Below, piece by piece: positions 22,607 to 29,589 of a DNA stretch of 64,000 nt (positions within the stretch are counted from its first letter, which is position 1; every line of letters starts with the position of its first letter). Source of the DNA: Pseudoselenomonas ruminantium (GTDB taxonomy: Bacteria > Bacillota > Negativicutes > Selenomonadales > Selenomonadaceae); assembly GCF_900104055.1 (NCBI RefSeq), contig NZ_FNJQ01000001.1, forward strand, positions 62,001 through 126,000. The letters run 5' to 3'. Below the pieces are notes generated by a model. It worked only from the letters and a program-made list of their open reading frames with translations, had not been told where the DNA came from and did not search any database. The position numbers and the translations under genes are program-made.

Positions 22607-22679
22607 CTCATCACAAATGACGAAATCCCCTTCCTATCGCTCGCAGGTTCAGCAGCATCCCAACAGCTGCTACGGTGAT

Positions 22680-22856
22680 TGTCAAACAGGCAGTTCTCCT
22701 GGCTCGGTTCATCGCTCCTCTGCGCCTTCCCAAAGGCTTTGCCTTCAGTGACTTAACTATGCAGATTCGCTCCCCTTACAGTGGCGGGACCGCGCTGGCT
22801 TATTCCAGCTTCTCTTTTCAGCAACCGGATGTGCGCCGGTTTGCACCTGTTCCTTC
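22680..22856 (-). ncRNA. Cobalamin riboswitch (AdoCbl-type aptamer)
   Basis: On the minus strand the leader carries the conserved pieces in order: an AGGTGC start after the first stem, the CGGTCCCGCCACTGT core, and the B12 box GAGCCAGGAGAACTGCCTG (22687-22705). A GC-rich paired region follows. It lies 40 bases inside a transcript from the promoter at 22894-22922. It controls cbiK, cbiL and the ABC importer. The remainder of the 22539-23006 gap holds the expression-platform terminator, this promoter and the lysS terminator. Confidence 0.93.
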
Positions 22857-22893
22857 TTATGCAATTCAAACTGTGAAATAACTCACAGGCAGT

Positions 22894-27225: not shown

Positions 27226-27858
27226 TCAGTCCACGGCAATCAGAATGCCGTGCGTCACCACAGGAAACTCAGCAGCGTCCTGCAAGGTTGTCGTATAGAT
27301 CGTCTCATCCTCATAGGACAAGCGGCTGCAGATGTATAATCTCGTCTCCTGGGGCCAACCGATATTGCAGAGTACCTCCGCAATGGTATGGGAATTATGT
27401 TCGCCATCCGTCAGCATTCCCAGTATTTTCCCCGGCTGATAGGCGACTTCACTGGCACCGGGCACGCGGCCATGGAAACTGGCCAGCGTAGCATCATGCC
27501 AGGGCAAGGCAAGTTTCGCAAAAGCATATTGCATCGAGCTGATACCGGGAATCACCTCGATAAGCTCTGCAGGGAATTCCCGCCGCAGAGCATCGAGCAG
27601 GGAATAGTATCCAGGATCGCCGGAAACCATTGCCACCACATTTGCCTGCTGCAGCCTGTCGCGGATAAAGGCCATCACGCCGGGAATATCGGCGGTTATG
27701 GCACAGGTATCCTGCCCGGCATGGGAAAACTCTGCCAGGGCGCGCTTACCGCCAACTAAATAACGGGCAGCCTGGATCGTTTTCAGCCCTTTGGGCACGA
27801 TATAGTCCGGATTGCCCGGGCCAATGCCCACTACGATAATCTTATTCTGCTTGTTCAT
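27226..27858 (-). CDS. cbiE: Cobalt-precorrin-7 C5-methyltransferase
   Basis: A 210-residue SAM-dependent tetrapyrrole methylase of the anaerobic B12 pathway that methylates C5. It opens with IIVVGIGPGNPDYIV (SAM-site loop), followed by VAMVSGDPGYYSLLDAL and VIPGISSMQYAFAKL, the CbiE order of motifs. Its usual partner CbiT (C15 methylation and decarboxylation) is not fused and is not in the window. It overlaps cbiD by 17 bp, so they are coupled. Confidence 0.92.
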   Translation of the reverse strand: MNKQNKIIVVGIGPGNPDYIVPKGLKTIQAARYLVGGKRALAEFSHAGQDTCAITADIPGVMAFIRDRLQQANVVAMVSGDPGYYSLLDALRREFPAELIEVIPGISSMQYAFAKLALPWHDATLASFHGRVPGASEVAYQPGKILGMLTDGEHNSHTIAEVLCNIGWPQETRLYICSRLSYEDETIYTTTLQDAAEFPVVTHGILIAVD

Positions 27859-28966
27859 CCGGCAACTTCCCTCCTAAATTCCGGCAGATTTCCCGGGCTG
27901 TATCATCCATGCCCAGTAATTCACCGGTCAAAGTCACGAGCACCGTGCCCACCTGCATCTTCTGGAAAAGATAACGCTGAGCCCGGGTGCTGGCTCGCAT
28001 TGCCAAAGCCTGACAGACTTTTTCCTTCAGTCCGGCCTGCGCCAATACAGCCAAAGCATCCTCCGTGGTATTAGCATTCAGTACGGCCTGCACCTGCTGC
28101 GTGGTCAGCCCGGCTGCAGCACCATAAGCCGCCATGGTTTCCAGCCGCCCATCGGCAATGCGGTTATGAGTATAGAAGCAGCCCGCCGCTACTTTAATCA
28201 GCTTGCCGATATGGCCAAAGAGCAGCACGCGCTTGATTTCCCGCTTCTGCGCAGCTTCGAGCATGAAGCCGATGAAATTGCTGGTCTGCACCATGGCTGC
28301 TTCCGGCAACTGCCATTCCTTTGCGAGCCGTTCACCGATCTTGCCGGGCACGAAGATCAGTTCCTCATAGCCTGCGGCCTTAGCCACATCAATCTGCGGC
28401 ACCAGCGAATTCTTGAAGCCTTCTTCGGACATAGGGCGCAATACCCCTGTCGTGCCGATGACGGATATGCCGCCTTCAACGCCCAGAATGGGATTCAGTG
28501 TCTGTTTGGCTAGTTCCACACCAGCAGGAATGGAGATGGTAACCTCCAGCGGTACTTTATCCGTGCCCAACACATCCGCCACAGCATTGCGGATAAGCTG
28601 CCGGGGGCCGGGATTGATCGACGGCTCCCCTACCGGCACCGAAAGGCCCGGCTTGGTCACCGTGCCGATGCCCTCCCCTGCCTTGAAAATGACTTCTGCC
28701 GGTGCATCCGGCAAATGGCGGATGGTGGTAAAGACCGACACACCATTGGTGATATCGGGATCATCGCCGGAGAATTTTACGACTTCGGCGGTCAGGACAT
28801 CATTTTCCTTGGTAATATTTTTTACGGGTATAATAAGCTCCGTGCCATCTAAAGCACGGAGTTCAATCATATCCCATTCATTTCCCTGTTCATAGAGCAG
28901 AGCAGCCTTAACACCAACTGCCGCACAGGCGCCAGTTGTATAACCGCTTCTCAACGTATCTGACAT
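27842..28966 (-). CDS. cbiD: Cobalt-precorrin-5B C1-methyltransferase
   Basis: A 374-residue CbiD, which methylates C1 in the ring-contracted intermediate of anaerobic cobalamin synthesis. It shows the signature opening RSGYTTGACAAVGVKAAL (residues 6-23), then PGLSVPVGEPSINPGPR and LFGHIGKLIKVAAGCFYTHN. Length is typical. AAGGGG precedes ATG 28966. Unlike cbiK there is no cobalamin riboswitch upstream: the whole 5' gap is filled by the nested palindromic repeat at 28985-29589, so its promoter is either within that repeat or further upstream. Confidence 0.93.
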   Translation of the reverse strand: MSDTLRSGYTTGACAAVGVKAALLYEQGNEWDMIELRALDGTELIIPVKNITKENDVLTAEVVKFSGDDPDITNGVSVFTTIRHLPDAPAEVIFKAGEGIGTVTKPGLSVPVGEPSINPGPRQLIRNAVADVLGTDKVPLEVTISIPAGVELAKQTLNPILGVEGGISVIGTTGVLRPMSEEGFKNSLVPQIDVAKAAGYEELIFVPGKIGERLAKEWQLPEAAMVQTSNFIGFMLEAAQKREIKRVLLFGHIGKLIKVAAGCFYTHNRIADGRLETMAAYGAAAGLTTQQVQAVLNANTTEDALAVLAQAGLKEKVCQALAMRASTRAQRYLFQKMQVGTVLVTLTGELLGMDDTAREICRNLGGKLPDEQAE

Positions 28967-28984: not shown

Positions 28985-29589
28985 AAATTGCAGTTTATCG
29001 GGCAGTTCGTGCTGAAGGTATCCCGTTCATACGTTGTCAGGGGTTCACGGGGGAGTACTTTTGCTGTTTCCGCTAAACGTCCCTCCCTGTCAAGTTAGAG
29101 CTGTTTAGCTGGATGCGCCGGGCAGGCCAGCGGCGCGTCTTTCAGCGTGCTTTTTAGTTACTACCTGCGTCGGGCCGGTCTTCGCTTACGCTCAGACTGT
29201 CGCTCCCACAGCAAAAGCACTCCCCCGTGAACCCAAGAAACGGAATTGACAATCAGCACGAACCGTTGCTCCCATAACAAGAACATCGATGTAATTGCGG
29301 CTTCCAGCCGGAACATATCTGCAGACACAAACAAAGCTTTGGGTGGAGGCGGGGATGCTTATTCGCCGACGGAACGACTGCCTGAACGAAGTGAAGGCTG
29401 GCCCGCAAACCGTTGTTACTGGAAACTGAGCTGAATATACGCGCCGCCGGCCTGCCCGGCGCAGGTTGCTAAAAAAATACGTACTTCTGCTGGCGGGTCA
29501 TTTAGTGGAGTGGCGAAGAAGTATCCCCGCCTCCGCCCCACTACGCTGTAACAGATTTAGATTAAGCTCGCATTGACAAACTGCAATTT
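28985..29589. repeat. 605-bp nested palindromic element (MITE-like)
   Basis: A non-coding block filling the gap between the flippase-like gene and cbiD. The ends are perfect 12-bp inverted repeats, AAATTGCAGTTT and AAACTGCAATTT. The left half contains 26-nt arms at 29041-29066 and 29209-29234 (25/26 complementary) and an outer pair at 29005-29015/29253-29263. The right half has 26-nt arms at 29342-29367 and 29512-29537 (23/26). A 24-nt GC-rich core at 29115-29138 recurs inverted at 29439-29462 (23/24), so the halves are diverged inverted copies. No transposase is present. One end lies 1 bp from the flippase stop. Confidence 0.8.

What the first reader, a model, noticed from the sequence alone, without database searches (positions are those of the whole stretch)
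28985..29589. A 605-bp nested palindromic element fills the gap upstream of cbiD
Seen: perfect 12-bp terminal inverted repeats; inside them two stem-loops with 26-nt arms each (25/26 and 23/26); and a GC-rich 24-mer that occurs in inverted orientation in both halves (23/24). The halves are therefore diverged inverted copies of one roughly 290-bp unit. The element ends 1 bp from one gene's stop and 18 bp from the next gene's start. There is no transposase. It could be a non-autonomous mobile element, a large structured RNA, or a recombination/nucleoid site. It also leaves cbiD without any visible promoter or riboswitch.
Basis: partly seen in the sequence, partly recalled or inferred. Interest (0 to 1): 0.7.

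Follow-up and report, generated by a model that had tools for sequence, protein, structure and literature searches.

The report
Dispersed flipping palindromic repeat in Selenomonas
The 605-base palindromic stretch is one copy of a non-coding repeat family scattered through Selenomonas genomes; many copies sit at the same chromosomal sites in different species, yet they are alike within each species and often lie in opposite orientation, which is unusual for a bacterial repeat.

Summary
In detail: this is one copy of a dispersed, apparently non-coding ~605-bp repeat family. There are about 24-40 copies in this genome, 25 sites in one complete relative and 33 places in another. It matched in 16 of 22 genomes of the genus (Selenomonas ruminantium and kin) and, in a family sample, only weakly in one other genus. 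Its halves are inverted, diverged copies of a ~250-bp unit. The cbiD copy is a gained insertion: present in 3 of 22 genomes, both neighbours 11-106 nt apart in the other 19. No target duplication of 3 bp or more was found (0 of 54). In two complete genomes its terminal 12-mer occurs only at ends of this element. Best reading: an old MITE-like palindromic repeat, now maintained mainly by ectopic recombination between copies (probably break-induced gene conversion), with in-place inversion. The mechanism is inferred; a dedicated recombinase or repeated insertion at fixed targets is not excluded. A strand-specific RNA is not supported.

The parts
28985..29589 (.). one full-length copy (605 bp) of the dispersed palindromic repeat; orientation at a shared site varies between species
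28985..28996 (+). left terminal inverted repeat AAATTGCAGTTT (imperfect match extends further inward)
29578..29589 (-). right terminal inverted repeat, perfect over 12 bp
28985..29236 (+). half A, ~250-bp unit
   Evidence: consensus A against reverse-complemented B: 68.6%; score 70 vs shuffle maximum 30
29340..29589 (-). half B, the same ~250-bp unit in inverted orientation
29041..29067 (+). half A long stem, 5' arm (partner 29208-29234)
   Evidence: compensatory changes among copies
29208..29234 (+). half A long stem, 3' arm
29341..29367 (+). half B long stem, one arm (partner 29512-29538); in four copies of a relative the matching place (element 357-365) holds an IS1182-family element
29512..29538 (+). 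half B long stem, other arm
29104..29138 (+). GC-rich core hairpin of half A; inverted partner 29439-29473; several short forms lack the stretch between these partners
29439..29473 (-). inverted copy of the GC-rich core in half B
29283..29292 (.). perfect 10-bp palindrome ACATCGATGT in the centre; its 20-column alignment block has mean conservation 0.90 over 34 copies
27842..28966 (-). cbiD (downstream neighbour)
   Evidence: PF01888, TIGR00312
29591..30580 (-). flippase-like membrane protein gene (upstream neighbour); 11-106 nt from cbiD without the element in 19 of 22 genomes
   Evidence: PF03706

Best explanation
It is one copy of a genus-specific, non-coding, interspersed pseudo-palindromic repeat, MITE-like in architecture. 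SHOWN: about 605 bp, two inverted ~250-bp half-units, short terminal inverted repeats, tens of copies per genome, gain at cbiD, no detectable target duplication, sites shared between species, within-genome homogenisation of the copies, opposite orientations at shared sites, and central-deletion forms, some of which end at base-pairing partners. INFERRED: the shared insertions are mostly old. The palindrome probably forms hairpins or cruciforms that break during replication, and the breaks are repaired from other copies. That would make all copies in a genome evolve together, would allow copying in either orientation because both ends look alike, and would delete the loop in short forms. The enzyme that first dispersed it is unknown.
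For: Dispersal. Gain at cbiD: (3 of 22 occupied, 19 of 22 empty). Shared sites: 30 groups of copies with matching flanks in different genomes. Homogenisation: of 25 orthologous pairs picked by hand, 14 have at least 3 sampled paralogues on both sides, and in 14 of 14 the orthologue is less similar than the best paralogue in both species (one only narrowly, 0.792 vs 0.794); orthologue identity is about that of other cross-species pairs (tree). It does not clearly depend on intact ends: G005 damaged (15) 0.860 vs intact (8) 0.872, p 0.32; G006 0.890 (4) vs 0.885 (8); this fits general recombination better than an end-recognising enzyme. Flips: of 29 copy pairs matched at both ends 14 are flipped; as sites, 9 of 14 contain a flip. 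Short forms: two G002 sites and one G004 site join element 152 to 457, which pair in the palindrome. Compensatory changes in stems without consistent strand bias. 170 of 171 gaps are not multiples of 3.
Against: No break, conversion tract or inversion was observed directly; each species is one genome, so in-place inversion is deduced. Flipping the whole core needs recombination inside the short end repeats, little homology for general recombination. Spacing between core end and neighbouring hairpin is equal in only 7 of 25 orthologous ends (shuffle mean 3.5, p 0.038), so junctions are often not identical, which also fits renewed insertion. In G002 end damage does correlate with divergence (rho -0.52, p 0.03). 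Flanking single bases match more often than shuffled (19 of 54 vs 12.1; 1 of 500 shuffles as high), so a 1-bp duplication or base preference is not excluded. Open frames: 52 of 82 copies have a stop-to-stop frame of 100 aa or more, vs 26 of 82 mononucleotide shuffles, a point against non-coding, though frames are not kept across gaps. Compensatory changes in palindromes can arise by template switching without selection, and several rest on one sequence.
Confidence: 0.55

Rival explanations
1. Classical MITE: a non-autonomous derivative of a transposon, moved by a transposase that recognises AAATTGCAGTTT; homogeneity within species reflects recent bursts and shared sites reflect strong target preference.
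For: Terminal inverted repeats, tens of copies, gained at cbiD. Ends often abut a hairpin: 69 of 203 vs 6 of 203 control stretches, and 19 of 203 ends directly abut a motif close to ATATGTGTGGATAA (orthologous sites counted apart), as a target preference would give. Variable junction spacing. The 1-base excess at the flanks.
Against: No target duplication of 3 bp or more in 54 copies with near-intact ends, though direct repeats are said to wane with age (PMC10969869). All 57 occurrences of the terminal 12-mer in two complete genomes lie at ends of this element (placed by eye), so no autonomous partner with those ends is there, unless the five copies split by an IS1182-family element are counted. 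Chance sharing of so many sites between species is implausible without old insertion. GC equals the window (53%).
Confidence: 0.22
2. Site-specific inversion system: a recombinase acting on the terminal repeats flips the core at fixed sites, perhaps switching what is transcribed next to it.
For: Core orientation is about random relative to fixed flanks: flanking hairpin on the left in 27 and on the right in 34 of 61 ends; 9 of 14 two-sided shared sites contain a flip.
Against: No recombinase was sought systematically or identified; no within-species inversion observed; copies with damaged ends persist. Inversion alone does not explain homogenisation.
Confidence: 0.1
3. A large structured RNA or a processed mRNA element.
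For: Strong predicted folds on both strands, compensatory changes, neighbouring terminator-like hairpins.
Against: No Rfam family on the element (E up to 5). Wobble pairs do not favour one strand consistently: half A 45 GT vs 25 AC, half B 23 vs 30. Orientation at shared sites is not kept. No transcription data here.
Confidence: 0.06
4. REP/REPIN-like element moved by a Y1 (RAYT) transposase.
For: Inverted halves with hairpins, no target duplication, intergenic sites at gene ends.
Against: Y1_Tnp (PF01797) has no match in G002 and G005, two complete genomes with 25 sites and 33 places; it is present in element-free G003. The size is far above REPINs (recalled).
Confidence: 0.03
5. A selected chromosomal site (nucleoid, supercoiling or replication function).
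For: Persistence at the same sites in several species and few decayed copies.
Against: No significant bias towards the origin in G002: 16 of 25 in the origin half, p 0.23. No match in 6 of 22 genomes of the genus. Present at a given site in some species and absent in others.
Confidence: 0.04

Closest known systems
Bacterial MITEs such as ERIC, Correia, RUP (general class)
   Same: Little or no coding capacity, intergenic, inverted-repeat ends, tens of copies, strong hairpin potential.
   Different: Longer than the usual <500 bp, not AT-rich, no direct repeats found, no partner element found, opposite orientation at shared sites, strong homogenisation. (MITE definition from PMC10969869: passages and section 2.1 read; details of the single families recalled.)
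REPINs / BIMEs
   Same: Two inverted hairpin units per element, no target duplication, intergenic, persistent populations.
   Different: 605 bp instead of about 100 bp; no Y1 transposase in two complete genomes that carry 25 sites and 33 places. (REPIN features recalled; REPIN papers seen only in the listing.)
Concertedly evolving gene families such as rRNA operons
   Same: Dispersed copies resemble each other within a genome more than their counterparts elsewhere.
   Different: Not a gene family, and orientation at a site is not kept. (rRNA gene-conversion paper PMC8022953 seen only in the listing.)

Membership tests
MITE (prokaryotic) | terminal inverted repeats of about 4-30 bp | tested here: met
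   12 bp perfect, longer imperfect
MITE (prokaryotic) | total length typically under 500 bp | tested here: not met
   82 full copies as extracted 595-613 bp; short forms of 260-300 bp look like deletions
MITE (prokaryotic) | flanking direct repeats, at least in younger copies | tested here: not met
   0 of 54 with 3 bp or more, shuffled mean 0.96; 1-base matches 19 vs 12.1. Copy ages unknown, and direct repeats are said to wane with time
MITE (prokaryotic) | typically AT-rich | tested here: not met
   GC 53.4% vs window 53.3%
MITE (prokaryotic) | autonomous transposon with the same ends | tested here: not met
   57 of 57 terminal 12-mers in G002 and G005 are ends of this element, five copies being split by an IS1182-family element with its own ends; other genomes not tested this way
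MITE (prokaryotic) | no transposase gene of its own | tested here: met
   no frame kept across gaps: 170 of 171 gaps not multiples of 3; but longer open frames than shuffles, 52 vs 26 of 82 copies with 100 aa or more
REPIN/RAYT | a Y1 transposase in the genome | tested here: not met
   absent from G002 and G005; present in 13 of 22 genomes including element-free ones
REPIN/RAYT | inverted pair of REP hairpins with GTAG/CGTC-type tag | not tested
   inverted hairpin units present, tag not examined
structured RNA family | match to a curated family | tested here: not met
   E up to 5; gathering, whole window
structured RNA family | strand-specific base-pair conservation | tested here: inconclusive
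   GT/AC 45/25 in half A, 23/30 in half B
concerted evolution by gene conversion | paralogues more alike than orthologues at shared sites | tested here: met
   14 of 14 testable of 25 hand-picked pairs
concerted evolution by gene conversion | conversion tracts seen between strains | not testable with these tools
   one genome per species

The most novel reading that the evidence does not exclude
A genome-wide set of fixed chromosomal sites, each holding a 605-bp palindromic core that is repeatedly flipped and overwritten from the other copies by a dedicated end-recognising recombinase: an invertible, self-homogenising interspersed repeat whose orientation at each site may switch local transcription.
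Probability: 0.12. Interest if true: 0.8.

Novelty: new variant of a known kind. Interest (0 to 1): 0.5.

Why it matters
Bacterial intergenic repeats are usually read as transposon relics that jump, then decay. Here sites are shared between species while the sequences at those sites are shared within species, and orientation at a site is not kept. That makes it a natural experiment on palindrome-driven recombination and concerted evolution in a bacterium. Practically, many contig breaks of this draft genome fall inside the copies, and a copy between the flippase gene and cbiD may affect cobalamin gene expression.

Tried and rejected
Origin-proximal enrichment: looked likely by eye, not significant in G002. 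Y1/RAYT origin: rejected. Autonomous partner: no terminal 12-mer away from the element in two genomes. The IS1182-family element inside five G002 copies as the driver: rejected, because it has its own ends and 9-bp duplications (read by eye) and lies in both orientations. The idea that a CCGYTGRC...GYCARCGG hairpin is an integral part of the element: such hairpins lie next to it in 8 of 9 cases in G002 and 12 of 16 in G005, and at metQ-purB in 3 of 3 occupied and 0 of 4 empty genomes (15 of 22 lack that gene pair); but element-free G007 and G016 have 18 and 16, G003 and G019 3 each. Left open. pSR1 as an excised circle: first noted so, then rejected. Clean target reconstruction from empty sites failed, because other repeats occupy or replace the junctions. 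Viral contigs: no match to one exact core pattern. Literature: searches listed nothing recognisable as this element; only PMC10969869 was opened (passages and section 2.1). One search failed in the script and was rerun. Dropped rows: the group around L028/L066/L067/L099/L100/L111/L051 probably joins different sites through a repeated flank; without it 29 groups, 20 with a flip, and 37 flipped to 26 same pairs; it contributes no two-sided pair.

Full report
CHECK. The two halves are inverted relatives over ~250 bp, 68.6% identical as consensus, with a ~100-bp centre between them.

WHAT IT IS. In its own genome (G000) the 605-bp query has 40 places at E 2.5e-48 or better. Six are full length, two (on C55 and C41) have an internal deletion, and most of the rest stop at contig ends, so there are about 24-40 copies. 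In the genus 16 of 22 genomes match, one of them (G018) by a single 31-bp hit. In a family sample 10 of 121 genomes match: nine of the genus plus one weak 70-bp hit in another genus. Exact-pattern hits in named genomes, 20 stretches, are all S. ruminantium: HD4, ATCC 12561 and metagenome-assembled genomes (near-identical records may be left out there). G002 (10 contigs, 3.0 Mb chromosome with a DnaA-like ORF near base 1, named by eye) is probably TAM6421; that name is recalled, not tested. G002 has 25 sites: 17 full, 5 split by an IS, 3 short forms. G005 lists 33 places, two of which (6361 and 2821428) have equal scores and may be an assembly duplicate.

IT MOVES OR MOVED. The flippase gene next to the window copy was found in 22 of 22 genomes. 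In 19 of 22, cbiD follows in the same direction after 11-106 nt with no element (11-13 nt in 8 of them; in several of the other 11 a terminator-like hairpin lies between, by eye). In G000, G002 and G006 the element sits there (G006's contig ends inside it, and the G002 and G006 copies lack the first bases of that end). So it was inserted into a close gene pair, most simply in the ancestor of these three; no species tree was made. No target duplication of 3 bp or more: 0 of 54 copies with near-intact ends, shuffled mean 0.96; single flanking bases match in 19 of 54 vs 12.1. The terminal 12-mer occurs 57 times in G002 and G005, each time as an end of this element (placed by eye).

WHAT IS UNUSUAL. 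With flanks of up to 400 bp from 203 ends, 73 cross-genome copy pairs fall into 30 groups of shared sites, 21 of them with at least one flip (for one doubtful group see Tried and rejected). Restricted to the 29 pairs matched on both sides, 15 have the core in the same and 14 in the opposite orientation; these are 14 sites, 9 with a flip. Pairs are not independent. Copies largely cluster by genome (82 copies): within G002 mean 94.8%, G002 against G000 80.3%. Of 25 orthologous pairs picked by hand, 14 have at least three paralogues on both sides; in 14 of 14 the orthologue is less similar than the best paralogue in both genomes. Exceptions to clustering exist: L136 of G006 is 99% like L014 of G000, a copy at another site, and L138 of G004 is 94% like the window copy, which suggests transfer between lineages. 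Homogenised copies include those with damaged ends (G005: 15 damaged, 8 intact, difference not significant), but in G002 damage correlates with divergence (rho -0.52, p 0.03).

SURROUNDINGS. 69 of 203 ends have a hairpin starting within 30 bp, control 6 of 203; of 89 copies with both ends read, 51 have it on exactly one side, 3 on both, 35 on none. The cbiD copy has none by eye. 19 of 203 ends carry an ATATGTGTGGATAA-like motif (10 or more of 14 letters) directly at the boundary, against 5 of 203 anywhere in a control stretch of 60 positions; orthologous sites are counted apart. The window holds no such motif at up to 2 mismatches, where 0.29 are expected, so this says little. Core orientation relative to the CCGYTGR-type hairpin is 27 to 34 over 61 ends.

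STRUCTURE. Half-unit stems common to both strands' folds (56 and 49 pairs, 34 copies) show 12 and 9 pairs with two or more Watson-Crick types, several resting on a single sequence. Wobble counts do not favour one strand: 45 GT/25 AC in A, 23/30 in B read inward. This suits a DNA hairpin or palindrome self-correction rather than a strand-specific RNA, but does not prove it. Short forms join element 152 to 457 (pairing partners) at two G002 sites and one G004 site, 140 to 457 at a third G002 site, and lose other central stretches at two G006 sites; the BLAST pieces overlap by up to about 20 bp at some junctions. Five G002 copies carry a 1711-bp element whose transposase, tested in one copy, is IS1182 family (NF033551 above cut-off); four lie at element 357-365 in both orientations and one in the other half's stem, each with 9-bp duplications by eye. 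Coding: 170 of 171 gaps are not multiples of 3, but 52 of 82 copies have a stop-to-stop frame of 100 aa or more against 26 of 82 shuffles.

MECHANISM. Shown: insertion, shared sites, homogenisation, flipped orthologues, central deletions. Inferred: palindrome-induced breaks repaired from other copies. From general knowledge, long palindromes are cut by SbcCD in E. coli and repaired by recombination (recalled; one search gave listings only). Whole-core flips need recombination within short end repeats, the weakest step. Rivals are given with their probabilities.

NOVELTY. Several MITE features were tested and not met (length, direct repeats, AT-richness, partner in two genomes). It works like an interspersed palindromic repeat and is best filed as a new variant of that kind. 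The literature searches listed nothing recognisable as it, within a library that lacks most subscription papers.

Noticed in passing
L095 (NC_002139.1, 1-4692) and L219 1212-5903: 'Plasmid pSR1' of S. ruminantium is identical over all 4692 bp to one stretch of the HD4 chromosome; it starts right after and ends with a HindIII site that is present in two direct copies of this repeat, with no other HindIII site between. It is probably a cloned chromosomal HindIII fragment rather than a plasmid.
   Followed up: yes
window 22672-22865, minus strand: Cobalamin riboswitch (RF00174, 94.9 bits), on the far side of cbiD from the element and reading away from it.
   Followed up: no
L210, L252, L253, L254, L267: A second ~85-bp hairpin repeat (TGATGGTAACTTTCC...GGAAAGTCACCATCA type) sits at gene ends, and behind metQ occupies the place where other species carry the 605-bp element.
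   Followed up: partly
L221 and L222: In G006 another palindromic repeat (CCCCTTTAGGGGG... / GTGGTCAC... type) lies at or near sites that hold the 605-bp element in G002.
   Followed up: no
L216 (G005): By eye, a sequence resembling half of the element, not hit by blastn, lies beside a flank that in G002 adjoins the element; possibly an older relative.
   Followed up: no
L136 (G006) and L014 (G000): Two copies 99% identical at different sites in different species, suggesting horizontal transfer of a copy.
   Followed up: no
G007 and G016 genomes: The stem CCGYTGRC...GYCARCGG that often neighbours the element is also frequent in species without it (18 and 16 places), perhaps a genus-typical terminator.
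   Followed up: partly
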